From positions 21,246,001 through 21,310,000 of the forward strand of contig JAYKYS010000009.1 of NCBI GenBank assembly GCA_036924285.1: 64,000 nt of DNA. Direction: 5' to 3'. The position numbers were made by a program, and so were the translations under genes. Source of the stretch: Asterella californica. Its lineage: Eukaryota > Streptophyta > Marchantiopsida > Marchantiales > Aytoniaceae. The notes under the pieces were generated by a model. The model ran no database searches. It was not told the DNA's origin and was given only the letters and a program-made list of their open reading frames with translations. The first letter of the stretch is position 1, and the number at the start of each line of letters is the position of its first letter. Positions 5,906-60,714 of this stretch are shown piece after piece.

Positions 5906-7065
5906 TCTCATACTATTCTTTCATGATCCAATGATCCAGTTGTTTTTCCCGTCTACAGAAGTTGAATTACAAATGTTCATTTCCAAACGAAAAACATCGG
6001 GTTCATATCCTTCGTTAAGTACTTACAATAATGAATTTTGATAACAAAGAGAAAGAGTGAAACTTTGAATACATCCGATCATAGTGCAAGAAGTGTCGCA
6101 AGACAAAGTGAAAATATGATCTAGCTTAATGGTTACTTGACCCTTTAAATACCAACTTACTGTATTGACTAATATTCCCTAAAAATCTAACACCTAGAAA
6201 AATCTACAAACAATAAATTTGAAATATAGTAACGCCTCCCTAAGTTTCTCCTTTCGACTCGTTGAGTTCATTTGCTAACACCAACTAGCCATCCGTCATA
6301 AATGCACCTTTACTATTCAATCCCACAGAAGTTGATGTTCTAAAAGGACATCATATGAATTCGCGATAGTTTACTGGAAGATTCTTGGCAAACTCTCATA
6401 GCATATTAAACCTGTTGTTTGATAATCATAAATTTTAAAGATAAAATGATAAATTATCAATATGAAATATCAACGCCATACAGGATATTAGTTATCTATC
6501 ATAGTATATTATATAGCAAAGATGCAACTCACTCACTTCATTCTCTCGACTAAGGTAGGGTTGCGTCCGCAGAGAGTGAGACGAGTCAGTTTGAGGTGGA
6601 GTAATGATAGCGAATCAACAAAAGCAGATATGTGAAGACATGACATGCCAACAGCACCTCGAGACCAACTCGGACAAGAGGCATCACTTTCTGCTCGTCC
6701 ATTTCCGTCAGTTAGTTTACTCCTGATCATAAAGCCACTTGTGGAAGGTGCTTCCTTTGGAAGTTGGAACAGGCGGAAGCAAAATCAACATTTTCTCAGA
6801 CAGAACCCCAGACAGAACGCCAGTAAGAATTTGGTCGTTTGCAGCACAAGAACCGAGGCTGCCTTGCCTCCAAACCTCCAAACCTCCATGTCTCGGTCGG
6901 CCCCGTTGAACTTCCCCAGATCTAGAGAAAACGGTTCTACAAAACTTCACTTGACAAGCTTGACAGACAGAAAAATGCCTGTTGTAAATAAGCCTCCTGG
7001 ATATGTTAGAATCTAGAGGAGGACATTCTGAGAAAAGCCTGTATGATCGACTTCTTCTACATACA
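5906..7065. other. Intergenic; left flank of the MULE
   Basis: No supported gene. Open frames occur on both strands at 6530-7016, but none has a recognisable motif. A GA microsatellite begins near 7069, just before the MULE target sequence. Confidence 0.4.
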
Positions 7066-7068
7066 ATT

Positions 7069-7144
7069 AGAGAGAGAGAGAGAGAGTAACTGTAGAAGAA
7101 GTACTTGCGGGGAAGTACTGTAGTACGTTACTGGAACACACACA
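7069..7144 (+). repeat. Left MULE flank, duplicated beyond the right end
   Basis: GA repeat followed by GAAGTACTTGCGGGGAAGTA and CTGTAGTACGTTACTGGAAC, ending in an AC run. The same block recurs at 18358-18438 outside the right end of the element. The last nine bases (7136-7144, ACACACACA) and 18309-18317 (ACACACACG) agree at eight of nine positions and are the likely target-site duplication, of the length usual for Mutator elements. Confidence 0.7.
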
Positions 7145-7389
7145 GAGGAATTGGCTTGATCACACCCCCAATACGATCGCTGCGCTTGATCATACCCCTC
7201 TTAACGTTTGGTTGCTTGATCACACCCCCAACCTCCCATCGTCCGTCCTGCCGGTCAACCGCGCCATGTAGATCAAGCCGTTATGCCAGGTCATAACGAC
7301 AGTTCGACGTGGAACGTGCGCCATGTCATATTGACAGTCTGACGTGGTGAAATCGCCACGTCACAGTTGGGTAGTCTGACGTGGTGTGT
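7145..7389 (+). repeat. MULE left terminal inverted repeat
   Basis: 245 bp starting GAGGAATTGGCTTGATCA, the inverse complement of 18064-18308 with about five mismatches. CTTGATCA(C/T)ACCCC occurs three times with a start spacing of exactly 30 bp (GCTTGATC at 7154, 7184 and 7214), a plausible set of transposase-binding sites. The inner part has two AGTCTGACGTGGTG copies. Matching stops abruptly after GTGGTGTGT at 7389. Confidence 0.95.
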
Positions 7390-7742
7390 AAACGAACGAT
7401 TTGTATGACGTGGAGCGTGGACGAGCTGTTTACTTTGAGCGGAAATGAGCGAGAAAGACGGGGCAATGCGAGAATGGCGCCAGTATCGTCCGGCCAGTCT
7501 CACAGTAACGCGTGAGATGCATTTACAGATTTTCCGCACTCAAAATGCGAGGTGATGCGAGATCAAAGAGATGAGGGTGATGTGAGATCGAGGAGAGGGG
7601 TGAAAAGTTACGAGCGAAGACGAAGGCAAAGGCAGTTGTTGTTACCGTTAGACGTGTTGATTACAGAGTGTACACAGCCGTGTGTAAAGTTTCCGTGCGG
7701 TGAGCTGAGTAGTTTATAGAAACGATACTACTCATTGAAACG
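7390..7742 (+). promoter_or_regulatory. Likely promoter and leader of the RPA-like ORF
   Basis: The 353 bases between the left inverted repeat and the first ATG of the RPA-like ORF hold no gene. Transcription would start here or inside the inverted repeat, as in other Mutator elements, where the ends carry promoters. No TATA box was identified with confidence. Confidence 0.4.
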
Positions 7743-8564
7743 ATGTGTTCACTTGCAGAATTCGAAGAATGTATCGGCAATGTCTCTTCTCAGTGGGTTT
7801 CAGCTTCCATTCAACGAATAATCAAGAACAAGCTGTCTGGTTCTATCTCTTATGTTGCCTGCAACTTCCCGGGGTGTTATAAGCGTGTAAGTGAACCAAG
7901 CATGACAACGAGCTCAACCAGGAAGGTGTTGTATTTCAGTCATACGCAGCCGGGGCGAAAAACGTGGCACCCATGTGGTCAAAGAGGAAGCAGGAGACAA
8001 TATCGATTTCATCTAGGATTGATTGATCACAGTGTGAAGGACCGTGCAGAAACCGCATTACCAATAGTAATTGTGTGGACTATTGGAGAGAAACTATTGG
8101 GCATGACAGCAGAGGAGTTCGAGACACTAACAGTAGAAAAGCAAGATGAAATATTGAACACTGTGTGCTCAGAGAAGTGGCGTTTTAAAATTGGATTGAA
8201 TGCACAGCAGAATCGCTATATAGTGTTTGATGTGGAGCTTGAGATGGAGCAACCGGATGAATTTCAAGATGCTGTGGAAGACCTTGCGAATGCAATGGAT
8301 TGTTGTACTTTTTATCCATCTATGGTGGAAGATACTAAGTGCATATCGAAGGAAGATACTAAGTGCATATCCGAGAACGTTCAACTTGTCGAGATAGAGA
8401 GGCTACATGACATGGCCTTGTTACTGATGGGGAGAGCAAATGAGATAGATGTAGTTGCAGAAAACATTGTTCGAGAAATGAACACTATAATCGAACTGCA
8501 GAGAGAACAAAGAGCGGACCTTTCTGAATTTGGAGATGCACTTCGTAAACTTAGACAGTTGTAG
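7743..8564 (+). CDS. RPA70 C-terminal OB-fold-like protein (single-stranded DNA binding)
   Basis: A 273-codon ORF resembling DNA-binding domain C of the replication protein A large subunit. 'ISYVACNFPGCYKR' (residues 35-48) matches the start of that domain's zinc ribbon with C-x4-C, 'TWHPCG' (74-79) supplies a third cysteine, and 'IGEKLLGMTAEEF' (114-126) is the family's signature after the zinc loop, followed by 'WRFKIGLN' and 'YIVFDVELE'. The fourth zinc cysteine is replaced (C-G-Q-R). The last 60 residues look helical. A donor GTAAGT at 7887 and an acceptor at 7949 would remove 63 bases in frame, shortening an insert between the cysteine pairs; I cannot tell whether this intron is used. 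A 24-bp direct repeat (8328/8352) duplicates 'EDTKCISK'. It runs convergently with the HAD gene. The family call rests on motifs remembered, not on a search; a captured host RPA fragment or a transposon accessory protein would both fit. Confidence 0.6.
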   Translation: MCSLAEFEECIGNVSSQWVSASIQRIIKNKLSGSISYVACNFPGCYKRVSEPSMTTSSTRKVLYFSHTQPGRKTWHPCGQRGSRRQYRFHLGLIDHSVKDRAETALPIVIVWTIGEKLLGMTAEEFETLTVEKQDEILNTVCSEKWRFKIGLNAQQNRYIVFDVELEMEQPDEFQDAVEDLANAMDCCTFYPSMVEDTKCISKEDTKCISENVQLVEIERLHDMALLLMGRANEIDVVAENIVREMNTIIELQREQRADLSEFGDALRKLRQL

Positions 8565-8764
8565 ACTTAGTAGACTTCAGGAGGAGTGTGGTTGTGAAAA
8601 CTCAAATTTGGATATGGAGAAGAATGATATTTTCATGGTTCATTGTTGCAATGAATGGTTAATTGCACTGGGAGTCAATGAGTTTACTCTTGTATGGCAC
8701 TCGTGTTTGTGCATGATGTTTCTCCCTAGCAGTGTGTAATGTTCTTAGTGTTACCCTCACCAGC
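8565..8764. other. Spacer between RPA-like ORF and hairpin array
   Basis: Likely 3' untranslated region of the RPA-like ORF. No further gene seen. Confidence 0.4.
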
Positions 8765-9830
8765 TCAGAGGCGATACATCTTGTATCGCACTGTTGCTGA
8801 TCGATACAGACTCTCCAGTCTGTATCGCTTCGACCTTATCTTATCCTTCGGAGCGATACACTATGTATCGCACTCGATGTGCGAAATAACGCCTGTATCG
8901 CTCAGAGAAGGAACGATACACGTAATGTTTCGTTACTGCGGGGCGAAATAACCCCTGTATCGCACTCGTTTACGTAATGTTTCGTTCTTGGCGGGTGATA
9001 CAGCCCTGTACCGCACAGGTCAGGTCGAGGGATACAATCTGTGTCGCAGAGCGTAGGAGCGATACAGGCTGTATCGCTTCGACCAGGGTAAGCGTAAGGG
9101 TTAGCCACCCTGATCGGTGCGATACAGGCTGTGTCGCATTGAGAGGAGGCGATACAGATAATGTATCGTCTGGCCTCTACGATACAACCTGTATCGCTCG
9201 ACGATCGAGTACACTGATCGGGGCGATACAGGCTGTATCGCCCCGACCAGGGTAAGGGTAAGGGTTAGCCACCCTGATCGGTGCGATACAAGCTGTGTCG
9301 CACTGAGAGGGGGCGATACAGATAATGTATCGCCCGGCCGCTGCGATACAACCTGTATCGCTCGACGATCGAGTACACTGCTCGGGGCGATACATGCCGT
9401 ATCGCCCCGACCAGGGTAAGGGTAAGGGTTAGCCACCCTGATCGGTGCGATACAGGCTGTGTCGCATTGAGAGGGCGCAATACAGATAATGTATCGCCCG
9501 GCCTCTGCGATACAACCTGTATCGCTCGACGATCGAGTACACTGCTCGGGGCGATACATGCTGTATCGCCCCGACCAGGGTAAGGGTAAGGGTTAGCCAT
9601 CCTGATCGGTGCGATTCAGACTGTGTCACATTGAACGGGGGCGATACAGAAAATGTATCGCCCTGACTATGCGATACAACCTGTATCGCTCGACGATCGA
9701 GTACAGTGGTCGGGGCGATACAGCCTGTGTCGCACAGTTATGGAGCGAAACATCTTGTATCGCTCGACTATCGGTGTAGACATGACACATGTTTCGCTTG
9801 TGTTCGGAGCCTAACAGGCTATATCGCACC
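8765..9830. repeat. Hairpin array 1 (GCGATACA/TGTATCGC palindromes)
   Basis: About 1.07 kb made of short inverted repeats packed nearly end to end. The commonest form is GCGATACA, 2-6 loop bases, TGTATCGC, with variants such as GCGAAATA or TGTGTCGC at either arm. The left part (8765-9080) is irregular; 9081-9736 is a regular 164-bp tandem repeat; the rest decays towards 9830. Base composition is GC-rich against AT-rich surroundings, and reading frames stay open on both strands because the units lack stops, so those frames are not genes. It lies between the convergent 3' ends of the RPA-like and HAD genes. Confidence 0.9.
9081..9736 (+). repeat. 164-bp tandem repeat, four copies, within hairpin array 1
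   Basis: GACCAGGGTAAG recurs at 9081, 9245, 9409 and 9573, an exact 164-bp period. Each unit is a chain of hairpins: an 11-bp stem (CCGACCAGGGT with ACCCTGATCGG) whose loop carries telomere-like GGGTAAGGGTTAG, then several GCGATACA-type palindromes and CTCGACGATCGAG. Copies are over 90% alike by eye. The fourth copy diverges in its second half. Confidence 0.9.
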
Positions 9831-9992
9831 GAACAGGTACCCTTCGCCCTGTGTTGTTCTGTCTGGTGTTTGTTTATAACCATAATTTATATGAATTCAA
9901 AATAATAATATTGTAACCATTGATGCGAAACTTTTATCAAAAGTTTTATAACTTTACTTGCAAGGAGTAGAAACTTGAAGTTATCACTATTC
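9831..9992. other. Spacer after hairpin array 1
   Basis: AT-rich stretch, likely the 3' untranslated region of the leftward HAD gene. No gene seen. Confidence 0.4.
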
Positions 9993-12900
9993 TCACTTGA
10001 GAAGATGGAGGTAACCCATAGACATACTGTGTGGTACTGACCTCCATACTATATGTACTTCCTCTTTGGTAATATTGCTCCAATACTCTTGTAAAGCCCT
10101 AATAGGATCTTGAGCTTGAATCTGAGAATATCTAGTCTCCACATAAGATACTGTCTCCTCTGGAGTACATCCCCAATGAAGAAGCCAAGGCAACAAAGTT
10201 GCCTCTAAATACTGTTCCTTATCACACTCGATGGTGAAAGGAGAAAAAGGAGGAGGGTGGATAGCATTGAAGGGATGATTTGTAGAATTCTTCACTGGAC
10301 TATCATCCACCAGGAGAACATCTCTCGTGCTCAAGTTGTAGCGATGTAGATACGAGAAATCTTTCAGGTATAAATGATTCCCGAACCCTGCTTCCCTCTC
10401 TGTGTTATATTTGAAACACGACTCCTGAGCCAACACTCTACATACCTGATAAAAGATAAGAAAAGAAGGCAAGACTGACTGTATAAGAAGTATGGCAAAT
10501 TTGATATAAATAACAAAAAATCTGAACATGAATGGAAGGAGGATAGCAGTGTTGCGTAGATGCAAATACCTTCCCAGTTGCAACTCCAGGGGGTAAATAA
10601 TGCTTGGCGTCCATTGCATGTAGTAGAGTTGCAGTGTTGACCAAAGTACGGGATGTCCATATAATAACCTGAAACTTATCGAGACAAATGTCCAAAAATG
10701 CTTTCACTCCAGGTCGAGCCACATACCTGTAGTAAACATATATGGTAAACAAAGTAAGAGATTAAACTCAAATTTGAGATCTAAACATGTCTAGATTGCT
10801 ATTTATACCAAGATGAATGGATAGTGACGTACCATACAGAAGGCTTAGGGGTATTCTCCACTACATATCCCTTCTCACGAGCCTGCATCAACTCCTCCTC
10901 AGTCCTCCCAACTTTAACCAAAAGACCATTCAAATCAAGAATAAGAGTCTTCCGTCTTATGGTAGTAGGGTGAATAAGACGAGGTAAGAACTCAGGGGTC
11001 TCTTGTATACGAGCTATTTCTTCTTTTCCCACCCATTATCTCGTAGTCCATAGCTCCTAGTTCCAAAAGCTTTTCTGCAAGCTGTGCTTTCTTCTCATCG
11101 ACGGTAGTGGTTAATGCAGCAAGTTCCTCCTTCTTCCTCTTGATGCTATCGTAGAGAATAATCTCTTCACCTGCCAAAATCATCTTCGACTTGTAAACAT
11201 TGTACATGCCCTTACACAGCCAAGACTTCTTTGGAAACATACATATCAGTACAATGTTTCTAAACAGTAAAGTGAGCAGAAAACCGTAAATAATTCAGAA
11301 ACTCAAAACAGAGGAAAAAGAGCATCTCACTGTATGATGGAGGTGGAGGAGCTCTCTGTGAAGATTGAGGGTCTTGAGTTTGTTGAGAAGACGACGGATC
11401 TTCAACCGAAAGTTGTACTTGATTAGAAAGACAACTAAAAATACTACTACAAAACTTTGAAATCATAAACAAATGCACGTAATAAACTTATAGAGGAGGA
11501 AGCAGACATCTTACCTAGAGTACCTCCTTGCGAAGACCCAGCATGTTGGATTGGCTCCTCCACTTGTTGGGAACTCAAGAAGATGCGAGACTCCGGAAGT
11601 ATACCCGCATGTCTCATGAAATGGGTCAATATCATACCCACCCAAGTCTCTGGATGCCTCACCAACTTCTCCTTACTCATATCCTTTTTCAGGGCGGAGA
11701 TCTCAGCATCTAAAGAGTCCAAGATGAACTCAGCCCAATCATAGTCTTCTCCGCTCTCTTCTACTTTACTCTTCAAGTAAAGAGCCAAGTGTCCATGTAC
11801 CTCTTTAGGACGTCTACGAGCTAGAAGTATGCAGTTGATGAGCTGAAAGATAGGTCTCCACTCTGGATATTCACACATCCATAACAAATATCTTTTCCCT
11901 TTCTCATCTTTTTCTGGGAACCAATCATCTATCAAAGCTCTCTTAACATTGTGGGGACGAGGTACTGTAGTTCCCATGGGTAGAACTAATGCTTCGCGAA
12001 CAAAAGACTCATCCAATAATATCTCGTGTCCTTCAACGATGGCACGATGAATAGTTGGATCATAAGTGTCTATGAATTGTAGACAATATGATATCTGCAT
12101 ACATTGTAGGGTTTAGGGTTTAGAGTTTACATACATGACACACACATACATTACAATAAGAGGAAGTGCACTAAGCACACTTGCATGTGTGAAAAGAAAA
12201 GCTTTCATATACAAATAGAAAGAAAGAAGGGACTGATTATGCAGACTTACATCTGGACGAGGAAAGTCGAAGGAGAATGTCACAAGTAATCCCACTCGAT
12301 CTATAGCATCTTCTTCAACTCCAGATAATGCATTTTCAATGTCCTCTTTCAGCACCCAGCACCATTTTAAATGATACCGATCATCTTCCTTTGAATGATA
12401 TTTGAACATCGAAGGTCCTTCTCTCATTTTCTCCATAGCAGCTGGAAAATAGCAGACAACAGAGAGTATCGGTAAGGGAGTACAGTTCGCGACGGGCGAA
12501 ACAGCCCGTGTATCGCAACCAAGAAATAAGCGAGACTGCCCGCTTCGCCCCGCTAGAGCGATACACAGGCTGTATCGTCCGAAGGGAGCGATACATGGCG
12601 TGCTTCGCTCCCTTTCCTAACGATACAGACTGCGTCGCCCCGATGTTCCTCGCCATCGGGGCGAAACAAGTAACTGTTTCGCCCCGCTAGAGGGCGATAC
12701 AGCCTACATCGCCTCAAGGTGGAAGTCTCTTCCACCCTTCGGGGCGATACACAGGCTGTATCGACAAAAGGGAGCGAAACATTGCATGTTTCGCTCCCTT
12801 TCCTGGCGATATAGACTGCATCGCCCCGATGTTCCTCGCCATCGGGGCGAAACAAGTAACTGTTTCGCCCCGCTAGAGGGCGATACAGCCTGCATCGCCT

Positions 12901-14203
12901 CAAGGTGGAAGTCTCTTCCACCCTTCGGGGCGATACACAGGCTGTATCGACAGAAGGAAGCGAAACATTGCATGTTTCGCTCCCTTTCCTGGCGATACAG
13001 ACTGCGTCGCCCCGATGTTCCTCGCCATCGGGGCGAAACAAGTAACTGTTTCGCCCCGGTAGAGCGATACGTGGGCTGTATCGCCCCGCTAGAGGGCGAT
13101 ACACAAGCATGCATCGCCTCAGGGTGGAAGTCGCTTCCACCCTGAGGGGCGATAGACAAGCTGTATCGCCCCGATGGCGATGAACTATTTTGAAGGGGGC
13201 GATACAGCCCATGTATCGCCCCGCTAGTGGACGATACAGCCTGCATCGCCTCAGGGTGGAAGTCGCTTCCACCATGAGGGGCGATACACAAGCTGTATCG
13301 CCCCGATGGCGATGAACTATTTTCAAGGGGGCGATACATGGGCTGTATCGACAGAAGGGAGCGAAACATTGCATGTTTCGCTCTCTTTCCTAGCGATACA
13401 GCCTGCGTCGCCCCGATGGCGAGGAACAATTTTCAATCACGGGGGCGAAACAAGTAACTGTTTCGCCCCTGTACAGCGATACATGGCGTGTATCGCCCCG
13501 CTAGAGGGCGATACAGCCTGCATCGCCTCAGGGTGGAAGTCTCTTCCACCCTTCGGGGCGATACACAGGCTGTATCGACAGAAGGGAGCGAAACATTGCA
13601 TGTTTCGCTCTCTATCCTAGCGATACAGCCTGCGTCGCCCCCATGGCGAGGAACAATTTTCAATCACGGGGGCGAAACAAGTAACTGTTTCGCCCCGCTA
13701 GAGGGCGGTACAGCCTGCATCGTCTCAGGGTGGAAGTCCTTTCCACCCTGAGGAGCGATACATCGCATGTTTCGCTCTCTTTCCTGGCGATACAGCTTGC
13801 GTCGCTCCGCTCGACCAAGGAGTACACTACGCGGGGCGATACTCACCATGCATCGCGCTAATCTTGCCCGATACTGCATGTATCGCTGCTCTTTTGCGGC
13901 GATACACGTCGTATCGCTCTTAAACCCCTAAATTTCTACTCGTTTCGACGTGACACCACCTGAATCGCCTTAAATTCGTGCGATGCATGTTGAATCGCAC
14001 ACTATCTACACCCGAATTTAAACATTTCACGACATTTCACAAAGATAAAGTTTGATTCGAAACTTACTTGGATCAGCCTCCTCGTCTCTGTGATTCGTCT
14101 CTCTTGCATCTGGTGCCCTGCCTCGTCCTCGTCCATCACCTCGTCCTCGTCTGCCACCTCCTCTACCACCTCCTCTGCTCTTACTACCTCTCGTTCTCAT
14201 CAT
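9993..14203 (-). CDS. Spliced MULE cargo gene with C-terminal NIF/FCP1-type HAD domain
   Basis: Seven exons can be joined in frame: 14203-14068, 12441-12251, 12094-11515, 11417-11331, 11022-10833, 10726-10570 and 10445-9993, giving 597 aa. All introns are GT-AG. Exon 1 is rich in RG repeats ('RGRGDGRGRGR'), an RNA- or nucleic-acid-binding style tail. Exons 2-3 encode about 250 residues I do not recognise, exon 4 is Pro/Gln/Ser-rich. The end is an NLI-interacting-factor/FCP1 HAD fold: 'LILDLNGLLV' (residues 358-367), 'VIIWTSR' (415-421) and 'LLVDDSPVKN' (491-500). The nucleophile motif is D-x-N rather than D-x-D; I recall a plant HAD subfamily with the same D-x-N-G-L-L, so this may be inherited rather than damage, but classical phosphatase activity is doubtful. 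Weak point: the acceptor at 11023 lacks a pyrimidine tract. An open coiled-coil reading (11240-11031, 'KRKKEELAAL') lies in that intron; if it is an exon, the frame breaks near 11031. The HAD part looks captured from a host gene. Confidence 0.7.
12105..12127 (+). repeat. Short telo-box-like TTTAGGG run
   Basis: TAGGGTTTAGGGTTTAGAG lies in the second intron of the HAD gene. It holds two units of the plant telomere heptamer. Such short runs are common in plant introns and promoters. Confidence 0.7.
12480..13925. repeat. Hairpin array 2, inside intron 1 of the HAD gene
   Basis: About 1.45 kb of back-to-back hairpins. A 186-bp period is clear on the left (unit starts at 12588, 12774 and 12960); further right the units are rearranged (13361, 13588). 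Each unit strings together GGGAGCGAAACA/TGTTTCGCTCCC, GGCGATACA/TGCGTCGCC-type, CCCCGATG/CATCGGGG, GGGGCGAAACA/TGTTTCGCCCC (11-bp stem) and GGTGGAAG/CTTCCACC. Array 1 uses the same terminal core but different units. The array fills most of the 1.63-kb first intron, so it would be transcribed and able to fold as RNA. Confidence 0.9.
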
Positions 14204-15038
14204 TCCGATTCAAGAAAGAATCGATCAGAGATTACAGGTTTCTCTTAAACTTCTAAAAAACCTACAGCATTACTCGATCACTTCGAACAAGTCTCCTCCT
14301 CTCTCTCTCCTCACTCACCTCTACCTCTTTCTACTCTCCTCACTCACCTCGTCCTTCCTCTCCTCTCTACAGTCGTCGCTGAAGTCTCACTCTCTAAACT
14401 CACCCTAAAGCTCTCCTCTCCTGTAAAAACTTCCTTAACGTGTGCGAACTCCACTCGACATTCTCAAGAGGAACTCCACTCGACTTCTCAACACGCTCAA
14501 CGCCCGTTACAACTTCTTACACGGTACTCAACGTCAGAACCATGTCACAGAAGTTTCCGCGCCCTTTCTCTCCCCTCTTCACCTCGCCAGCTGTTCTTTC
14601 TTTATAGTGTATAGGTCAGCCAGTAGTTTCATATTTTCGAAGTTCAATACAAGAGAGATTGAACATAAGGCGAGCGATATATTGCACATCTGTCCACATA
14701 TTTTAAAAGGAGATAGTGTACTTCTATCCAGTGTATTCAACTAATATATACACCACATAACAACTTGTGCTCCTTGTTTCACACTGCTCTTGTCACAAAT
14801 AGAGAGCTATTTATAAAATGATCATGATGGACGAATTTGAGAATTGATAATGAGTTAATCATCATATGTGTTTGTTGAGAAATAATGTATATGAACTGAA
14901 AAAGAACAATGTACTACTACCTATAACAAACTAGTAATACCCGAAGATGTATCAACACAATAATGAATCTGTAGCAGCTGGTACTGTAACTACTCCCTAC
15001 AATAATGAATCTGTAGCAGCTGGTAATGTAACTACTCT
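14204..15038 (-). promoter_or_regulatory. Promoter and leader region of the HAD gene; end of MURA
   Basis: No gene seen. On the minus strand, just upstream of the HAD gene's first ATG (14203), the sequence is strongly purine-rich (GAGTGAGG and GAGAGAGG runs), like many plant 5' leaders. The right part holds the 3' end of MURA transcripts and a 42-bp tandem duplication. Confidence 0.4.
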
Positions 15039-15042
15039 CTAC
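14959..15042 (+). repeat. Two-copy 42-bp tandem repeat at the MURA stop codon
   Basis: AATAATGAATCTGTAGCAGC occurs at 14959 and 15001, giving a 42-bp period with very few differences. The second copy overlaps the MURA stop. Confidence 0.85.
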
Positions 15043-17826
15043 AGCGGATCTGGTTCACTCAATGAAACTTCTCCTTCAGAAGAAGCAGTAATCGCCACAC
15101 GAATTCCACTTCCTTCTACTTCATCTGTCACCTCAGTGAACATCTCTTCGTCATCCGTGGGTGCATACAGCCTAGGGCATGTTCTTCTATTGTGGCCTGG
15201 TTGATCACAGAGACTGCACTTCCCTGGAGTAGAACGAGGAAATTGTCCCAAGTCATGATGTGGACCTGTTTGTTGGACTCTTCTTCGTCTTCGATGGCAC
15301 ATTGTCTCAGAGGCAAAATGTAATATCTGCTCATCATTAATAGGATACTCATTCTCAATGGATGTGGGTTCAGTAAGGTGACTAGTTTCAATTGGTGAAG
15401 AGACACGGGTACTGCTCGTGGGAGGTAGATCTTCATTGCCATCTGCTGTTGCTGTAGATTGAGTGAATTGGATGTTGTTATCGATCCTCACCACTCTGTG
15501 TCTTCCCCTTCGTCTTGCCACCGGCGGAGGTCCGCAACTGTACACCGGTTGAAGATCATCAGTGAAAACAGCTGGCAACGCACTATGTCCGTAGATTGAA
15601 AATAACGAGGAGCTATGCCAGATGTTATCCAATCTCGTTGTTGGGTTCCCACCAGTCTCTCTGTCGGAAGCAATGACATGTCCACATGGCCATCTCATCT
15701 CTTGAAGTTCTGTACATGTACACTTTCCTGCACCACCTTGTGCTAGTTTCACCACATGTGTTACTCCATTGGTATGGTCGCGGACGGTAGCCTCGAATGG
15801 AGAAGACACTTGACAGAGAAAACCTTCTGCAGCATGTTCATTCTCCATGAGCCGAAGTCTAGCAAAACGAGTCAATACACTTGTTTCTTGCTGAAGCTGT
15901 ATCCTCCGCTTAGTGAACTGCTGCATAATATAATACCATAAATCCAACAGGATCTTCAATGGAGCATTCCAGCGGATTGGTCTCAGAGCACTATTCATAC
16001 TCTCAGCCAAGTTAGATGTGACTTTCTCATAACGTGGTAGAGAAAACGCATATCGGCTATACCTCTTTGATTGTATATTCCTCAAATATTCAGCCAGGTG
16101 TCTACCTCTTTCCCCTGATGCATCCAGCTTGTCAAGCACTTCATTGTACCTACAGATGAGACATTATACATACAAATGAGATAATAGCTATAACTCAACC
16201 AACAAAAAACTTCAATAATTCAATGAGAAAAAGATTGAGTGAGAAAAGAAAAAAGTATAGAGTGTCTTACATTTCTCTCGTCTTGGCGTACAAGCAATTC
16301 AGAAATGGTCTCTCCGCCTCTTTGCCAAACCTCGTCCGTACATTCATTCGGATGTGTTGTCCACAATGCCCGTGGACAACTTCAGGGAATACATCTGAAA
16401 CAGCTCTTTCTAAGCCCTTCTGTCTATCGCTGATTATCACAGTCTGAGGAGAAATAATACCATGTATAGAGTTGCGGAGATGTTGACAGAACCATGTCCA
16501 GTTTACAGTGTCTTCTTGTGGTGCAACTGCGAAGCCTAAAATGATTGCTTCATTTGCACCATCCAACACTGAAGCTAGAAATATTTGGCATGGAAACTTT
16601 CTGGACTTGCTATGACAAGCATCCAAACAAATCACTTTCTGACACAAAGGAAATATATCACGAGTGGCACTAGGACACACATAATATCTACTAAATATTG
16701 TTGTGTTACATTCCCAAGTACCCCAATCCACAACTGCCATGGGATCTACTTCAAGTATACGTCTACATACAGAAGGAATGTAATAGAAGGATGATGCTTG
16801 ATTACCCTCCAACCAGTCTCGAGAATGCTCTCTACTCCTCCACACCTGATAGTAAGGAACCCTCTTATTGAATGTAGTTCGAAGATCCTCCATGAGATTT
16901 TGTATGGGAGTGTTGGGGTCAATAGCGACTCTGTTACACATGACTGCAGCAAGGAATTTCGAGTTTGATGCAGGTCCACGCCAGTATCCGATCTGACTAG
17001 GACAACTGTGCTCTAAATCACAAATAGTAATAGTAATTCGGCTTGTGAACTTGCCCTTCTGTGCTCTAACTCTCCATTTGCATGGATGCTCCATATCACT
17101 ATCCCGAGCATTAGCCCCATAAAAGGTAGTTCTCCCAGCGGATTGATATCGAAATCTTTCACCACAATGACCGTTAACTGATTCTCTTCTTGATTGACCT
17201 TGCGGAGGTTCTGACCGACCAGCTGCAAGCTGCCTTACTGAGGCTCTACGTCTTTGTGTATATTCGTGGAAGCTGCGAGGCTGACTGTTTCTGTGACTCG
17301 TTTCAGCACTATTTGATGTTACAGATCTATCTTCGAATAATTTTCTACAACGAGCCTTCGCTCCATACCTACACACTCTAACTCTATAGTTTTGAGAGTT
17401 TTTCAATTTATGACTCGCTCGGCTATTCAAAAAACACCAACAGTCAACTGCGAAATCAAACTCCTTAAAGGATTCAAATTCTGACCCGAGACACACTTTG
17501 CTTGCAATAGCTCTCAAGGACTCCAAAGTCTTGCCTTGGAGTAACCGATTCACTCCTCTGACATCGGTCATTTCTCGTCGCCATCTTTCTAGCACGCTCT
17601 CCTCAGTAAGATCCTCAGAACGTACATCCATAGTGAAGCTCCTTTCTTCATCTTCGAAATGCAATCCGTCTAAACAATCATCATTGTCGCTCTCAATATC
17701 GAGATTCATCACATTGTATCGTTCGGTCGGCATATCGTTATCTCTGAATCTGTCCTTCTTATCACTCTCCACCGGCCCGTACTTCTGATCACTCTCCACT
17801 CTCCACCGCCCCGCACTTCTGATCAC
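15039..17826 (-). CDS. mudrA-like: MURA-type Mutator transposase
   Basis: Transposase that should cut and rejoin the element at its terminal inverted repeats. Two exons, 17826-16271 and 16149-15039, join across a GT-AG intron of 121 bases (donor GTAAGA, acceptor CTGTAG) to give 888 aa without a stop. The MULE domain shows the DDE triad: D402 in 'LDACHSK', D467 in 'ISDRQKG' and E568 in 'NLAESMNS', with the C/H motif 'CGQHIRMN' (488-495) after the second D. A SWIM zinc finger follows (C662, C664, C674, H676; 'WPCGHVIA') and a CCHC knuckle near the end (C830, C833, H838, C843). An Arg-rich segment at 805-810 could be a nuclear signal. Start is the most upstream in-frame ATG; one at residue 32 is the alternative. 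All expected catalytic and zinc residues are present, so the protein may be active. Confidence 0.92.
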
Positions 17827-18063
17827 TCTTCACTCTCCACTTCGCTTCGCTCTGATCAATACTCTCGGATTTTTTCACTTCTATGTGATCTTCGTCATTG
17901 TTAATGTGCGGGAAATGTTATGATCTATTTCAAATGTGTTATGATCTCTTTTACGGATAAAATTTGTCACTGTCTCGTTCTAGTTCTTTCCCGCGAAACA
18001 CACCCACTCGTCAGACGGTACATTTGCATGCCCCAAGTCAGACATGGCCACGTCACCATGTGA
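17827..18063 (-). promoter_or_regulatory. Likely promoter and leader of MURA
   Basis: The 237 bases between the MURA start and the right inverted repeat contain no gene and should hold the leader or part of the promoter, with the inverted repeat itself likely contributing. Confidence 0.4.
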
Positions 18064-18308
18064 ACACACCACGTCAGACTACCCAACTGTGACGTGACGA
18101 TTTCACCACGTCAGACTGTCAATATGACATGGCGCACGTTCCACGTCGAACTGTCGTTATGACCTGGCATAACGGCTTGATCTACATGGCGCGGTCGACT
18201 GGCAGGACGGACGATGGGAGGTTGGGGGTGTGATCAAGCAACCAAACGTTAAGAGGGGTGTGATCAAGCGCAGCGATCGTACTGGGGGTGTGATCAAGCC
18301 AATTCCTC
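18064..18308 (-). repeat. MULE right terminal inverted repeat
   Basis: Inverse complement of 7145-7389, 245 bp, about 98% identical. It carries the same three CTTGATCACACCCC repeats spaced by 30 bp. Confidence 0.95.
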
Positions 18309-18486
18309 ACACACACGAACGAATACCAAACACGAAAGCAACTTCAAAACCAACTATAGAGAGAGAGAGAGAGAGAGAGAGTAATTGTAGAAGAAGTACT
18401 TGCGGGGAAGTACTGTAGTACGTTACTGGAACACACACGAAACGAATACCAAACACGAAAGCAACTTCAAAACCAACTATACATGA
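18309..18486 (+). repeat. Right MULE flank: 123-bp tandem duplication of the target region
   Basis: GAATACCAAACACGAAAGCA occurs at 18321 and again at 18444, a 123-bp offset, with the GA repeat and the TACTTGCGGGGAAGTACTG block between them. That block also forms the left flank (7069-7136). The element therefore seems to have landed inside the first unit of a pre-existing tandem duplication. Confidence 0.75.
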
Positions 18487-21400
18487 GGAGGAAGTTGCTC
18501 ATTGCCTCGACAATTATTGTTTCGTTGACATGATAAACAGGTTCGCTCCCATACATCCAGTTCGCCAGCCGCATGCAGATCGCTGGATCATCCTCACGTC
18601 GAACGAATATGTCCTATGTGCAGTGCTGAAGCAGTTTCGAGTGGAAACGCACTATGAGGAGGAGAAACAAGGTGCTTACGAGAAAAAGGTACAGGAAGAA
18701 CCGATAGAAGCGATAGAACCCCATTGTGGTTTCAGCAGAAACTGCTTTTTTCTAGCCGAAGATTCCCTGTCTCCTTTTATTAGAATCCTCAAACCTTTAC
18801 TTCTCTAGCTGCAAGAAAGCTGCAAACACTCACCCTTCCAGCTTATATTAGAATCGGACTGACTAAAGGGATAGGGACAAGAAAACTTCCCTGAAAGCAT
18901 GGACAGTGAAGGCTGCGGCCATGTGAGTATTGGTGGCAGTGTGTTCTTTTTACTATACAGCACTGTAACAGTTGATCTTGACATGAGCTGCATTAAACTT
19001 AGGTGATCATATCCTGATGACTGCAGTCCACTGCTAGGGTTTACAACTTTACATCTGCCCCCGCGAAGCATTTCAGCGCAAGAAAGAAACTGGTTCAAAA
19101 TCACGATCAATTCCTTTTCCAAATCCAGCTGCAGCAGCACGCGCTCTTCTAGCATGCCAGAAGTGACCCTAGAGTGGAAAAAGCAAACCTAAAAAGACGA
19201 TGTCCAGCGCGTCTCATTTCAGTACAAGGGATTTCCCCCACGAGAGATTACGGAGGCTGTTTGACTCAGGATCCACTAATATATGGATCAAGTAAAATAC
19301 ATACATGCAAGATTGACTTCTGGGAACTTCGCCCGCTTGTTGTTATCGGGGAAAAGATATAAATGTTAAGCAAGTTGACAGGAAAGATGAAAATATTTGA
19401 TAAGTATTAAATATTAACTAGCCTAGAAATGCAGGAAGACCCGCAACAAGACTCGAACATAAAATGGGAAGCCGCTGAATACATATGCAAGATGTTGATT
19501 ACCACCAGAGAACATTTTATCAAAAGTTTAATTTATTATGTAACTTTTTTAAAGGAAAACGTTCAGTAATAAAGTAAGAAGAAGGTGAAATATGAAAAGA
19601 AGTTAGATTTTAATATGTATTCTATTCACGGAAAGAAAAAGACAAACAGAAGAAAGATACCATTGTTAAACAAAGTCTCACGACGTGACTCTTCGAATGA
19701 TATACTTTATATCTTTAGAGTATTCTCGTTCTCTATACATCCGGACCCTTAAGATAATTTCGAAAAAAACGAAGAATTGAACAAAACTTGAGAATAGATC
19801 AGCTGTAACGTGTAGCTAAAACAAATAGATATGAACTCTGTTGATTTCCTTGACGCAGGTGTAACTAAAATATAAATACATAAAGACATAATTACATAGA
19901 AGAAAGAGGCAGATGAGAACGAAAGGATCAGTGAACAAATAGTCTCAACCTTTTGCACCAATAATGACACTGCGCTGATATGCCTGGCGCGGGCACGGCG
20001 GCAAACCAATGGCATTGCTTGCAAGTTGTGGTTGTGGGCAGGGATGGAGGCCGTGACTTTCTCAATGCAAGGAGAGAAAAATATTTGCGATCATGCCTAT
20101 TCCTTTCTCCACTCGCAACCACGAAATGAAAACGATCAATCTACTAGTGCATCTTACCGTGCAAATGCTTGCTAGCTTCTCCTCTTCGAATCCCCGTGCC
20201 CACGCAACAACACTAGACGAATGAGATCCTGCAAGCATGGTCGACGATACATAGACAGCTCATGAATACATTGTCGACTCCTGCTACTACTGCTACTACT
20301 GCTGCCACAACCAACTGCTTCATGTTCAAGTATGATCAGTTCATTGATGCATTCATGACAAATATATTATATACCTCCTCCATCAGTCTCGACTTGGATC
20401 TCTCGATGGATATCCAACCGTCTTCCCAAGAGAACATAAGAGAGGACAGAGCTCGAGAGACTACGTATACTTACGTGCTGGCCGAGTGAATGAAGTGAAG
20501 CCCGGTTCGTCATTGTCCGTGCGAGTGAGCACATACACCGCCAAAGCCTTCTTTGTCTAGTCAAGACCGTTTCATGTCCCGGACGCGTCAATCAGCGATA
20601 TCGATCCTTTCACTCCTCGATCGATGGTCGACCACATAGCCGACCAACATTCTCATAACTTAATGCAGCAGCTCCTCCAGGCGGTCGGTAATTTGAGTGA
20701 GTCGATGAGGTAGACGTAGTAAGAGAAAAGTCCTGGAACTGGAACTTGGAAATAAACTCCACTTGCTGACGAACAGGACACAACGTCAAGCCAGCGTTCG
20801 ATCATATAACTTAAATGAAGTTGAACGTCGCTTTTCACATCACTTCGCGTAAGACGATGAATCCAGTCCTGTAAATGTGATCATGAACGAAAGAGAATAG
20901 TAATAGTTTCGAAAGTCTTCAGTTCCTTCGCGTCGTCTCGTCTCGCCGGACGAAGAAGGACGGCAATTAGAAGAACTCATCAGATTCATCAGTTTCCAGA
21001 CGGATCAGGTTTTAACTCTCAGTTGATACTTTACAAATAAATGTCCGCTTAACTAGCACCCATGATCGGATCCGAGACCAACAATGCGACCATCGAGATC
21101 GAAACAATAATCATTCAGACTCATGATCTCTCTCTATCTCTCTTTTTGCCGGAGGCGCGGGATAGATCTCTCTCTCTCTCGGCAAGTGGGATATGTCCCC
21201 CAATTTGTCACGTGCATCATGTTGTCGCCACCAGACAAGATTCTGTCTGCCGTTTGGAAGGCCAAACAGCGCCCCGCGCGCACGCTGAGAGGTGAAAGCG
21301 TTCGAGACGTGATGGAATTTCATCGATGGGCAGCTTGTAGACCCACTGAATTGGACCAATCTTCAGCAAACAGGCTCCAAAATCTTCTCCAGGACGAACA

Positions 21401-22812: not shown

Positions 22813-24989
22813 TTACATGGCAATCACATGGCTGGAACGGTCCGTCGAATCGTTGGCAGAGGCGATGGATTCAAATTCTGGATCGTTTTCCAGCTTCTCC
22901 ATATGGTCAGCTCTCAAGTGTACAGAGACATTGAGATTTCCATAGCCCAGAGGACTCGGCATCAGAATTACAAAGTTGGCAATTCCTTCAGGAATGGCTG
23001 CATATCCAGCGAACTGAGGCCTGCCCCAGCCGAAGTCAATTTCGTACATTCCAAGATGAATGCAACTAGACGCAATCACGACCTTGTCCGTGAAGACGTT
23101 GAAGTTAGGCATGACGACCGAGCCCTTGTTCAGCTCGATAAAGTCGATCAGAGAACGGAAGTTCTCGTCGGTGGCTGTCTTGGCAATCGACTTTTGCACT
23201 TTCTGCACTGCATTTGCAAGTGGTTGATATACGAGTTCAGTCATGGTGCATTCTGAGCTCGCAATGGCAATCATATTGCCGAAGTAGTCTTCAGGGACAC
23301 AAGGACTCTGGAGTCTCTTCCTGCCATCGACAGACATGATCATCCTGCTCGTGGCCTCCTCGTCCTGGTCAAACCCATTAGCCTTCATGATCAGTCGCCA
23401 GAGGTATGTGCTCGTACACTCGGTCGAGGTGAATGGGCCGTACTTGCCATTCTCGCTGGTTTGTCTCTTGAGATTACGCAGAGCCATGTCATCGAAGTGG
23501 AAGGTCCTGGCAACAATGGGCTGCTTTTCCTCTTCGGAGATTGGACCTCTTCGCTGTGGCGTCCTCGCTATATTCTTAGGCTTCAGCTTGTACTCTTGGC
23601 TGTGGTCTAGAGTTGCTCTGGGTGGACTCCTGGCTTGTAGCAGTGATCTCCAGTGATACGGCAATGTGCTGATTGGCTGACTTCGCATGTTCTGAGACCA
23701 CGCCTTGAGGAACATGTTACCGGAGTACACATCCGCAATTTGGTGGTGGAAGCTGCAGCCGACGATGACCCCACCGCATCTGAATTTCGTAATCTGGAAC
23801 AGCAGAAGCAAAGCGGCAAATTATAGCGAGCAGCGTACGAGCTCAGTCACTTATGAAGAACGTCTGTGTAAGACTCAAGACACGGTTCGAAACTACACGA
23901 AACGGGCAACCAGAGTGTACTCCATCAACTTCTGCTGAGATTATATTTGCATGAGGGCTTCTGGAAAGTTAACCTGAATGCAAACTGGTGGAAGAGAGCC
24001 GTCCTCAGCACTGAAAATCTTAGTGGGTGCAAGTTGTCTTCCAAGTGCTGGATCTGGGTTGTGGTAGTCCAACTCCTCCAAGTCACAATTTGCGTAAGCC
24101 TCGGCGAATTCAGCACCCGTCCCGTCGCAGTAGACATTGTAGATACCTTGTTCAGGATTCCTCATCCTTCCAGCAAGAGGATAGTAAGGAATCAAAACCT
24201 CGGACAAAGTCCTCTTCAAGGACGAAACGATATCTCCAAAGGCTCTGCCTTTCGTGGATTCGTACACAAAGTATGCCTGTTCGTACACGGAAGGCATCAA
24301 TCGGTCCATGTTCGACAGAGGAAACCAATGTTCCTGTACTTGCAGAGCTGGTTGCACGTGACACGCACTGGTTTGCGTAATTTTCACATCTTCGTGCGAC
24401 ATGATGGTTCGAGGGAGAGTATATTGTTGACTATACGTAGCTGTGGCTGCAGAGTAAGTCCTTCGGTTCTGCATTGACACATCAACATTTTACACGTTCA
24501 GATTCCGCTCGGTCTGGACTCTGTCTGATTGCGTTTTGATTCATATCTCAACAAGCCGGAAGGCAGAAAACCGAGAAGATCAAATGACCGGCAAGCAAAT
24601 ACTGACCAAATCATGCACACTAGCAGCAATTGACAAGCAAATGAACTGACCTTAACTTGCTGTAGAGGCTGCTCACTTCCTTTTGTTTGTGAGCTGGAGA
24701 CCTCAACCTGTGCTTTGACGTCGGAAGAGGATGCGTTTGGGAACAAGTTAAGTGCAGGTGAATGATATGCTCTCCTGATGTCGAATGCTGTCGACGCCCC
24801 TCGAACAGCACTGGGGCAAGGAGTGTATTGGTGGGGTTGTCGTACAGCACACCAGTGGAAGAGAGAATTAAAATCATCGAGCAACGAGTGGTTCCCCTTG
24901 AGTTGAAGAGTTGGGGAGCACGAGTGAATAGGACTCTTGAGAAACGAATTCAAAATACTCTGGCAGCGACGAGCGTATGCTGCAGCCAT
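22813..24989 (-). CDS. BAHD-family acyl-CoA acyltransferase with N-terminal extension
   Basis: Transfers an acyl group from acyl-CoA to an alcohol or amine; the acceptor cannot be told from sequence. Exons 24989-24651, 24468-23974 and 23793-22813 join by GT-AG introns of 182 and 180 bases, both phase 0, giving 604 aa. The second intron falls right before 'ITKFRCGG', the place where BAHD genes usually carry one. Catalytic 'HHQIAD' (H295, D299) and structural 'DFGWG' (531-535) are intact; 'YYPLAGRM' marks the N-terminal lobe. The BAHD core runs from about residue 140 to 590, a normal length. Unusual is the 140-residue lead: 'MAAAYARRCQSILNSFLKSP' is rich in Arg/Lys, Ser and Ala with no acidic residue in the first 36, like a mitochondrial or plastid presequence, while most BAHD enzymes are cytosolic. 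An upstream in-frame ATG at 25046 would add 19 residues. If exon 1 is not used, translation could begin at the Met at residue 136. Confidence 0.9.
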
Positions 24990-57365: not shown

Positions 57366-60300
57366 CTAACGCCATTGTTGTCCTTGTCTCCGTTTGAATA
57401 AGTCCAATACTTCGCTCGCATGTGCGAGATCTTCCTCTGGCACCCAAGTTGCTTCCTTCAAATGGTAACCACGCCATTTGACCAAGTACTCCATCCGGTT
57501 TGATTTACGCCGAGATCGCAAAATAGACTCCACCTCATATTCTGCTTCGCCTTGCACGACATCAGGTTGAGGCCTGAGTACTTGTTTGCGCTCCGGCTGC
57601 AAATCATCCTTGAAGTATTTCTTTAATAAAGAAACATGGAAAGTCGGATGCAACTGCCACTCGCGAGGAAGGTCTAAGGTATAGACGTCTTCATGCGGAT
57701 TCTTGACAATGACAAAAAATCCCGCAAACTTTGATGAAAACTTTGCCAATATTTCCTTCGGAAGTGTGAAGTTTTTCGCACTTAACCATACTTCTTCGCC
57801 CACTTGAAACTTCACTTGTCGTCGATGCTTGTTTACCTGCTTCATGTATCGTTGCTGCGCCTTCTCGAGGTTCTTCTTTACTTGCTCCTCGCGCCGCTGC
57901 ATTGCCGCCATCAACTCTTCAGCTGATGTTTGCCGTGTTCTTGGTCGTGCCGATGTAGAACTCCCTGCAAGAGTCAAGTCAAGAGGCCCTTCTGGCTCAC
58001 GTCCGTAAGCCAGCAAGAAAGGCGATTCGCCGGTTGTCGAATGTTTCGTGGAATTGTAGCAATACTCCGCAAGACTGAGCCACTCCGCCCAATCACTTTG
58101 GTCCGCGCTCACATAATTCCTCAAGTATTGATTCATAACCGAGTTAACTCGTTCCGTTTGCCCATCTGTTTCCGGATGAAAGGCGGTACTAAATTTTAAC
58201 TTAGTCCTCAATTTTTGGAACAAGTGTTTCCAAAAGACACTTGTGAACTTAGAGTCTCGATCTAAAATAATACTCCGAGGTAATCCATGTGAACGTCATC
58301 AAGTATCTAGGAACAACCGAGAAGTCGTGAACGCTGTTGCAGTATCCAAGGTCAGAGCAAACTTCGCTAGTTTGCTAAACCGATCAACTATAACAAAAAT
58401 CGTGTTGTATCCATTCGAGTCTGGCAGAGAGGTGATGAAGTCCATGCTAATGCTTTCCCAAGGTCTGGCTGGAATCGGCAGAGGATGAAGCAACCCTTGT
58501 TTCTTCTCATAAGAAACGCGGTTCGCTTGACAGGTTACACATGTTTTCACAAAGTGGGCAACATCGTCTTTCATGTGGGGCCAATAAAACTTTTTAGCTA
58601 CCACTGCTAAAGTGGACTTTTCTCCTTTATGACCTGATAAGGGCGCATCGTGACATTCTTTGAGTAACTTCGTCCTAAGTTTTCCTTGTCCCACATAAAC
58701 CCGACTTTGCTTGAACATGAGTAAACCATGCCTTAGCTGCATGTTCTGCAACTTCACTCCTCGCTTGAGTTGTTCCAAGTACTCCTTCGCTTGGTCATCA
58801 CCCATGTAACCTTCACGTATTCGCCTCTCCAAGTCTGATTCCTTAGGATACATAGCTCGCAAAATCTGTGTTGACGATGAAAGATATTCCTCCTTGCGAC
58901 TCAAGGCGTCAGGAACCACATTGTCCTTTCCCGCTTTGTGGATTAATTCCACGTTCATGAGCGCCAAGGTATCATGCCACCGTAGTTGCTTTGGCGTCAC
59001 CCGATCTTGTGTTTCAAAGTACTTGAGCGAAATATTATCAGTATACACTTGGGTTTTGTGAAGTCTCAAGTAATGCCGCCATTTCCTCAAGCAATGAACC
59101 ACCGCGAACAGTTCCTTCTCGTGAGTCGGCCAACGACTCTCCATCCCAGTTAACTTCTTGCTTTCGTATGCTACAGGTTTTCCATCCTACACCAACACTC
59201 CGCCAATCGCATAGTCGCTCGCGTCCGTGTGCACCTCGAATGGTTTGTCGAACTCCGGCAGCTTCAAAACTGGCGCCTTTGACAAAATAGCTTTGATCGT
59301 TTGAAACGCATCATCCACCTCCTTGGTCCAACTTACCTGTGCGTCTTTGTCCATCCAGTCCGTCAGCGGCTTCGCGATCTTTGAAAACCCCTTCACATAC
59401 TTGCGATAGAACTGCGCCAATCCTAAGAATCGCCGCATCCCTTTCACTATAGTCAGAGGCTCCCAAGTCACAATCGCGTCCATCTTCTGCATATCCGGGC
59501 CGACTCCTTCTACACTAATGACATGTCCCAAGAAGTTAATGCGCTCCAAACCAAACTCACTCTTGTCAATGTTGGCAAACAGCTTATGCTCCCACAGCTT
59601 CGTCAACACCACCCTTAGCTGCTCCGCGTGCGACTCCAAGGTTTTGGAGTAGATCAAGATGTCGTCGATGTAAACGATGACAAACTCATCCATCTCCTCG
59701 CAAAAAATTGTGTTCATCAATGTCATCTGGGTCAGCTATCCGGATCTGGTAATATCCTGACTTCAAGTCTATCCTGCTGAAGTACTTTGCGCCCGCTAAC
59801 CTATCAAAGAGGTCGTCTATCCTTGGCAAGGGATAATTATTCTTCACCGTCACCTTATTGAGTGCACGATAATCTACGCAGAGTCGTAACTTCTCATCCT
59901 TCTTCTTTGCAAAAAGAACTGGGGCTCCATAAGGTGACTTGCTGGTTCGAATATATCCCCGCGCTAATAGCTCACCGCGTTGTCTTTTCAACTCAAGGAG
60001 TTCCACCTGATTGAGTCGGTAAGGGGCTTTGGAAGGTGGTTCTGATCCTGGCAAGACCTCGATCTTGTGATCCACCACTCGCCTTGGAAGTAACTCAGCA
60101 GGTAACTCATCCGTCAAGACATCCTCAAATTCCTTAATCACTTCGCGAAGCACCTTCGGAAGTTTAGTCGCGTCTCCTGATGTTTCCTCTTGTCTGTCAC
60201 CTGCCATCAAATCTGCAACTCGCATCAAACACATGACCCCGTCGTTGAAGTCCATCTGTTTGCCTTTGATCAAATTCACTGCAAAGTCATCAATCTTCCG

Positions 60301-60690: not shown

Positions 60691-60714
60691 CGTGGTTCTC
60701 AAGATCATAGTCAT

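What the first reader, a model, noticed from the sequence alone, without database searches (positions are those of the whole stretch)
8765..13925. Two kilobase-scale arrays made almost entirely of packed hairpins inside a MULE
Arrays 1 and 2 (8765-9830 and 12480-13925) consist of short perfect or near-perfect palindromes set nearly end to end. They share the cores GCGATACA/TGTATCGC and GCGAAACA/TGTTTCGC, yet have different higher-order units (164 and 186 bp). Ordinary minisatellites repeat a unit; here the units are themselves strings of 6-7 different hairpins, with arm changes often matched on the other arm. I know of double-hairpin elements in organelle DNA and of bacterial REP elements, but of nothing quite like this in a plant nuclear transposon. 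Possible roles: hairpin RNA for small-RNA production, cruciform DNA bound by an element protein, or remains of a self-spreading hairpin.
Basis: partly seen in the sequence, partly recalled or inferred. Interest (0 to 1): 0.9.

Follow-up and report, generated by a model that had tools for sequence, protein, structure and literature searches.

The report
Paired-motif arrays inside a jumping gene
A large, apparently recently active jumping gene, whose closest matching transposase proteins come from a liverwort, carries two kilobase-long strings of one short mirror-image DNA motif that stays the same in related elements while the DNA between the motifs differs; the strings likely serve as landing strips for a protein that would help the element stay switched on.

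Summary
The two arrays are real and non-random. They lie inside an 11.2-kb Mutator-like element (7145-18308; 245-nt inverted ends, 98% alike): array 1 between two convergent genes, array 2 in the predicted first intron of gene 2. The shared unit is a fixed dyad, CGATACA-N3/5-TGTATCG, 26 and 37-39 times, most often 30-32 bp apart. In the same 517-Mb genome 12 copies were read: array 1 is in 12, array 2 in 11. All 23 left ends among 30 end loci carry ORF1 and the start of array 1. Two sister subfamilies (synonymous distance 0.14-0.28) keep the dyad with other linkers and units. The claimed matching of arm changes mostly fails at the level of distinct site types, except weakly at position 5 and in the far flank, and there is no G-U strand bias. 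Against a pure binding-site reading, arrays fold better than shuffles that keep the cores, through long linkers and, in array 2, matched flanks. Best explanation: dense dyad sites for a protein, likely element-encoded, acting on the element's own chromatin, as VANC proteins act on VANDAL tandem repeats. Binding and anti-silencing are inferred. New variant of a known kind.

The parts
7145..18308 (.). whole Mutator-like element (11.2 kb), flanked by ACACACACA / ACACACACG (8-9 bp target-site duplication)
   Evidence: inverted repeat scan, end alignment; a second copy of the target site without the element stands in the right flank at about 18370-18500 (sequence read)
7145..7389 (+). left terminal inverted repeat
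   Evidence: 98% complementary to the right one
18064..18308 (-). right terminal inverted repeat
7743..8564 (+). ORF1, 273 aa; sub-threshold resemblance to the replication factor A C-terminal domain
   Evidence: Pfam PF08646 E 0.00099, below its cut-off; pN/pS 0.60 among 12 copies; no homologue at E 0.001 in the protein search
8771..9828 (.). array 1: 26 dyads (C)GATACA-N3/5-TGTATC(G) between the 3' ends of ORF1 and gene 2; unit of 164 bp from 9059
9993..10619 (-). gene 2, predicted last coding exon, NIF phosphatase-like domain
   Evidence: PF03031 E 2.7e-05, above its cut-off; pN/pS 0.47
11447..12100 (-). gene 2, middle exon (217 aa reading frame), no known domain
   Evidence: pN/pS 0.35; no homologue at E 0.001
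12278..12448 (-). gene 2, predicted exon 2 (57 aa)
   Evidence: no stop in 11 of 12 copies (C729 has one; in C52a only part is aligned); pN/pS 0.30
12496..13917 (.). array 2: 37-39 dyads, units of 186, 132 and 112 bp, with extra hairpins such as GGTGGAAG-tct-CTTCCACC; lies in the predicted first intron of gene 2
14068..14203 (-). gene 2, predicted exon 1, Arg-Gly-rich, GTAAGT donor at its end
   Evidence: open with the donor in the 11 copies that have the region
15039..17733 (-). MULE transposase gene, two exons (15039-16139; about 16273-17733)
   Evidence: PF10551 E 6.7e-15 and PF00872 E 1.3e-09; pN/pS 0.27 and 0.51

Best explanation
The two arrays are dense strings of one dyad-symmetric DNA motif, CGATACA-N3/5-TGTATCG, that likely bind a two-fold symmetric protein, probably made by the element itself, which would keep the element's own non-coding DNA open for expression and jumping. 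Shown: the motif, its inverted orientation, its commonest step of 30-32 bp, its place in the element's non-coding DNA on both sides of gene 2, its presence in the family copies and the two sister subfamilies examined, and the change of linkers and repeat units around it. Inferred: that a protein binds it, that the protein is encoded by the element (gene 2, which the arrays bracket, or ORF1), that array 2 is intronic, and that the effect is anti-silencing or activation. Array growth by unequal exchange would raise motif density and so the strength of the effect.
For: Half-sites are in inverted pairs: of neighbouring arms within 8 nt, FR 333 vs RF 19, FF 4, RR 3 in array 1 (12 copies) and FR 375 vs RF 39, RR 13, FF 2 in array 2 (11 copies). 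In copy-to-copy alignments, differences fall at core positions 2-8 in 1.5-3.3% but at position 1 in 10.3%, in the spacer in 11.4% and elsewhere in 6.5%; position 1 was scored when sites were chosen and position 5 was not, so the choice of sites alone does not make this pattern (6 disjoint pairs: C1 51/531, C2-C8 89/3743, linkers with flanks 210/4876). CpG in cores differs in 3.5% against 11.1% in linkers and 15.7% in spacers. Sister subfamilies L055 and L056 (dS 0.14-0.28, coding dN/dS 0.18-0.37) keep C2, C3, C4, C6, C7 and C8 at 0.89-1.00 (C1 at 0.76 and 0.81), with spacers of 3 and 5 (one of 7) and 30 bp as the commonest step, but other units (sites chosen with up to 4 mismatches in the pair). 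Little arm covariation among site types and no wobble bias: sequence rather than pairing is kept. 256 genome places of the N5 form, reversed control 0. Precedent: VANC21 binds a short motif in tandem repeats of VANDAL21 introns and intergenic DNA (PMC5735166, passages read).
Against: No binding, methylation or expression data. No DNA-binding domain above cut-off in ORF1 or gene 2; both single-sequence AlphaFold models failed (pLDDT 39). Arrays fold more stably than shuffles that keep the cores (z -4.5 to -22.0, 20 of 20 array strands tested); shuffling only long-linker interiors costs z -0.6 to -10.1 (10 arrays) and permuting flanks z -0.9 to -6.9, -3.2 to -6.9 in the four array 2 copies, so there is pairing outside the cores. 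Spacers of 3, 5 and 6 nt are loose for a rigid dimer, and 4 is nearly absent. Recent core divergence (2.4%) is not below the synonymous divergence of the genes (1.9-3.3%), and deep linker interiors (2.8%, 59/2142) are as slow as cores; the alignments mix true and shifted repeat copies. Unlike VANC targets, the motif did not change between the subfamilies seen.
Confidence: 0.5

Rival explanations
1. Structural reading: the arrays work as strings of hairpins or cruciforms, in RNA of the 3' region and intron, or in DNA bound by the RPA-like ORF1 product.
For: Folding z -10.2 to -32.1 against dinucleotide shuffles and -4.5 to -22.0 with cores kept, 20 of 20 array strands; flank matching helps folding in array 2 (z -3.2 to -6.9, 4 of 4) and L056 (-3.4); array 2 linkers carry own stems such as GGTGGAAG-tct-CTTCCACC, in places 14 paired bases long; matched changes at core position 5 (21/2000) and in flanks 7-10 (8/2000).
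Against: At type level flanks 1-6 pair no better than with strangers; the outermost core pair is free; 9- and 11-nt linkers show no palindrome excess (0.31 vs 0.37, 37 types); G-T and A-C mismatches are balanced at type level, p 0.06-0.77 in 8 tests. Stems of 8-16 bp are short for Dicer (recalled).
Confidence: 0.2
2. No function: a minisatellite that arose from a palindromic monomer of about 30 bp and was rebuilt by unequal exchange while hitch-hiking in a successful element.
For: 30 bp is the commonest step in array 1 and both subfamilies, 32 bp in array 2; length and site number vary freely among copies; recent core divergence is not below synonymous divergence.
Against: Spacer, position 1 and near flanks have diverged widely among site types while positions 2-8 stayed; two subfamilies at dS 0.14-0.28 keep the core with other units; array 1 is kept in the 23 of 23 left ends examined.
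Confidence: 0.2
3. Transposition enhancer: sites for the transposase or an accessory protein, like the TNPA sites of CACTA elements.
For: Short motif repeated in both orientations; TNPA binds subterminal repeats, which act in excision, and regulates its own activity (PMC2613891, passages read).
Against: The arrays are internal, at nearest 1.6 kb from the left and 4.4 kb from the right end; none of the four exact 8-nt arm words occurs in the terminal repeats; C52a lost array 2 by an internal deletion and still has both ends and a 9-bp target-site duplication, so array 2 may not be needed in cis, though the deletion may postdate insertion.
Confidence: 0.1

Closest known systems
VANDAL elements of Arabidopsis and their VANC anti-silencing proteins (PMC5735166, PMC10398659; passages read)
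   Same: MULE; short motif at high density in tandem repeats of introns and intergenic DNA; repeats gained and lost quickly; element codes for extra proteins beside the transposase, VANC with tandem peptide motifs in its variable parts (here an Arg-Gly repeat of exon 1 varies among copies).
   Different: [quoted passage not shown] VANDALs have degenerated TIRs, here 245 nt at 98%; VANC proteins have DUF1985/DUF287, not found here; VANC motifs differ between VANDAL families, here the core is unchanged in two subfamilies.
CACTA (Spm/En, Tgmt*) subterminal repeats bound by TNPA-like proteins (PMC2613891, passages read)
   Same: Short repeated motif recognised by a second element protein with little sequence conservation; TnpA activates Spm together with demethylation (stated in PMC10398659).
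   Different: Subterminal, not internal; other transposase superfamily.
Abermu MULEs of barley (PMC9168764, passages read)
   Same: Likely autonomous MULE with extra ORFs, one in opposite orientation, 9-bp target-site duplications.
   Different: The words tandem repeat, subterminal and palindrom have no occurrence in its main text.
Bacterial REP elements and double-hairpin elements of organelles (recalled, no call)
   Same: Short hairpins in many copies.
   Different: Scattered in genomes; here, so far as checked, at two places of one transposon family.

Membership tests
Mutator-like element (MULE) | MULE transposase domain | tested here: met
   PF10551 E 6.7e-15, PF00872 E 1.3e-09
Mutator-like element (MULE) | long terminal inverted repeats | tested here: met
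   245 nt, 98%; 42 matches to the left repeat in the genome, a lower bound
Mutator-like element (MULE) | target-site duplication of 7-12 bp (range from PMC9168764) | tested here: met
   of 12 copies, 9 have both ends in the fetched DNA: by the flanks printed, 7 have perfect 9-10 bp, the window 8-9 bp with one mismatch, C1a 8 bp; 3 have one end outside the fetched stretch
VANDAL / VANC target | dense short motif in tandem repeats of non-coding element DNA | tested here: met
   arrays not coding
VANDAL / VANC target | fast gain and loss of repeats among related copies | tested here: met
   array 1 957-1277 bp (12 copies), array 2 936-1836 bp (11 copies) while the gene pieces are about 96-100% identical to the window
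VANDAL / VANC target | motifs in the same orientation (VANC21) | tested here: not met
   inverted pairs
VANDAL / VANC target | element with degenerated TIRs and a DUF1985 protein | tested here: not met
   TIRs 98% alike; no DUF1985 match at E 5 in ORF1 and the three gene 2 pieces scanned
VANDAL / VANC target | element protein binds the motif and removes DNA methylation | not testable with these tools
   needs binding and methylation data
CACTA / TNPA sites | repeats next to both ends | tested here: not met
   arrays at 1.6-2.7 kb and 5.4-6.8 kb from the left end of an 11.2-kb element
ordinary satellite without link to MULEs | arrays outside the element | tested here: inconclusive
   38 of 50 listed places lie in or next to identified elements; 12 unchecked, 206 of 256 not listed

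The most novel reading that the evidence does not exclude
A sequence-specific anti-silencing system of a MULE outside flowering plants, likely in a liverwort, that evolved independently of VANC: the element carries its own two dyad-site platforms of a kilobase or more each and an unrelated, so far unknown DNA-binding factor (Arg-Gly-rich, phosphatase-like gene 2 or RPA-like ORF1) that keeps it free of silencing, with the arrays tiled so that duplex sites and stems overlap.
Probability: 0.25. Interest if true: 0.85.

Novelty: new variant of a known kind. Interest (0 to 1): 0.6.

Why it matters
Loss of silencing caused by a transposon's own protein is described for VANDAL, and also for Spm and MuDR (PMC10398659). 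A further, structurally different case in a plant far from Arabidopsis would suggest that transposons repeatedly invent private binding-site platforms, and would make the question testable with a compact motif. None of the titles and abstract openings listed by the seven papers searches made here describes inverted-pair motif arrays in a MULE; the library holds open-licence papers only.

Tried and rejected
Coding arrays: two minus-strand frames are open across much of array 2 in the window, but in the copies the longest open stretch is mostly far shorter than the array (C729 373 of 396 codons is the exception), and 164 is not a multiple of 3. Helical phasing: centre distances peak at a period of 10.0-10.25 (R 0.60, 94 spacings), but with linkers collapsed and short steps removed other periods do as well (49 spacings, best 7.75); only the 30-32 bp step is safe. 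RNA wobble bias: counts over distinct sites looked biased to the sense strand (62 vs 30, 63 vs 96), but at type level no test is significant. Selection from slow cores among recent copies: weakened by the disjoint-pair run. Protein structure: both models useless. A two-site pattern in the bacterial and archaeal collection: 0 matches. Homologues of ORF1 and the middle exon of gene 2: none at E 0.001. Solved structures: none for ORF1, one chance-level match for the NIF-like exon. More distant MULE families of the same genome were sought by transposase search, never answered.

Full report
What is there. The window lies in an unnamed 517-Mb assembly. Of 10 protein matches of the first transposase exon, 7, the best among them, are from the liverwort Riccia sorocarpa at 31-52% identity; its assembly is 377 Mb (PMC11735767, passages read), so the window is probably from another species, likely a liverwort. 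The element runs from 7145 to 18308 with 245-nt terminal repeats 98% alike. It is flanked by ACACACACA and ACACACACG, and the right flank holds a second copy of the target region without the element. It carries a MULE transposase on the minus strand, ORF1 on the plus strand, and between them on the minus strand a gene 2 read here from four conserved open pieces: an Arg-Gly-rich exon 1 with a GTAAGT donor, two exons of unknown kind, and a NIF phosphatase-like end. The exon structure is predicted, not proven.

The arrays. Array 1 fills the space between the 3' ends of ORF1 and gene 2; array 2 fills the predicted first intron of gene 2. Strict palindrome scanning finds 13 and 21 stems where shuffles give 0.2 and 0.3. 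Arms of the two cores alternate in orientation, with more exceptions in array 2. By the core definition there are 26 sites in array 1 and 37-39 in array 2. The commonest start-to-start step is 30 bp in array 1 (11 of 25) and 32 bp in array 2 (10 of 38; 30-33 bp together 21 of 38).

Family. Eleven further copies were fetched. Gene pieces are about 96-100% identical to the window; arrays align only in shifted pieces and differ in length. Array 1 is in 12 of 12, array 2 in 11 of 12; C52a lacks array 2 through an internal deletion. Of 30 loci around terminal repeats (30 of 42 matches were made loci; they overlap with the 12 copies and include the window), 23 are left ends and all have ORF1 and at least two sites at the expected place; the 7 right ends have the transposase and no site. 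Gene pieces look under purifying selection among copies (pN/pS: ORF1 0.60; gene 2 pieces 0.30-0.47; transposase 0.27 and 0.51) and between subfamilies (dN/dS 0.18-0.37). Several copies have stops or frame changes, and the subfamily copies have one stop each in one piece (ORF1 of L056, last gene 2 piece of L055).

Sister subfamilies. L055 and L056 carry ORF1 at 84-86% protein identity and an array at the same place. Their tandem units and linkers are different (units of 92, 120 and 212 bp in L055), but the core, the spacers of 3 and 5 and the commonest step of 30 bp (16 of 28; 18 of 39) are the same. L055 also holds the edge of an array 2 with 4 sites; the rest of it could not be fetched.

Hairpin or binding site. 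Three tests speak for a sequence-specific dyad. First, arms against shuffled partners, per site type: no gain in flanks 1-6; core gain at position 5 only; a small gain in flanks 7-10. Second, per-position change: positions 2-8 low, position 1 and spacer high. Third, wobble asymmetry: no significant one at type level. Other results speak the other way. Arrays fold better than shuffles that keep the cores, on 20 of 20 array strands tested (4 of 12 copies, both arrays and strands, plus both subfamilies). Permuting flanks costs z -0.9 to -6.9, and in the four array 2 copies -3.2 to -6.9; shuffling long-linker interiors costs z -0.6 to -10.1 (10 arrays, plus strand). So in array 2 flanks match within sites more than between them when every repeat copy is counted, and some long linkers hold their own stems; the dyad reading does not explain this.

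Caution on selection. In six disjoint pairs, core positions 2-8 differ in 2.4%, which is no lower than synonymous sites of the genes (1.9-3.3%, all pairs), and deep linker interiors differ in 2.8%, against 4.3% for linkers with their flanks. The contrast with position 1, spacer and near flanks comes partly from alignments of shifted repeat copies. The case for constraint therefore rests on the older divergence among site types and subfamilies, not on recent copies.

CpG. CpG observed/expected is 1.27 and 1.13 in the arrays against 0.45-0.73 in the genes of the element and 0.76-0.78 in the flanks, but the terminal repeat, without the motif, is also high at 1.08. Core CpGs differ less often than other array CpGs. 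This fits low methylation or selection on the motif, and does not tell them apart.

Mechanism. A dense, symmetric, sequence-kept motif in the element's own non-coding DNA, around one of its own genes, with rapid change of repeat number, is how VANC target regions of VANDAL elements look apart from the symmetry, and there binding and loss of methylation were shown (PMC5735166, PMC10398659, passages read). I take the same logic as most likely here, with the binding protein unknown. It is not a VANDAL: terminal repeats are intact, no DUF1985 protein was found, and motifs are in inverted pairs. So it works like that system by inference and is not a member of it by test.

Noticed in passing
window 7000-7145 and 18309-18500: The element's target region is tandemly duplicated: the right flank holds a second, element-free copy of the left flank, giving an empty site next to the filled one.
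   Followed up: partly
window 7743-8564, 11447-12100: ORF1 and the middle exon of gene 2 show pN/pS below 1, yet have no homologue at E 0.001 in the protein search.
   Followed up: partly
window 14068-14203 and the copies: The Arg-Gly stretch of exon 1 has a six-residue repeat more in 6 of the 11 copies that have the region.
   Followed up: no
window 12718-12736, 12904-12922, 13117-13147, 13530-13552, 13724-13752: A hairpin without the core, around GGTGGAAG / CTTCCACC, recurs in array 2; the copy at 13117 has 14 paired bases.
   Followed up: partly
array 1 and array 2 of the copies: Spacers of 3 and 5 nt (also 6 in array 2) prevail, 4 nt is nearly absent (9 of 333 in array 1, 0 of 375 in array 2); unexplained.
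   Followed up: no
window 57366-61500: Pieces of a Ty3-type retrotransposon with a chromodomain on the minus strand.
   Followed up: no
window 22813-23811: Reading frame of the Transferase family, PF02458 E 9.6e-58.
   Followed up: no
G000:C1:42093053-42096720: Motif places whose spacers read in both orientations lie close together, suggesting an inverted or rearranged element.
   Followed up: no
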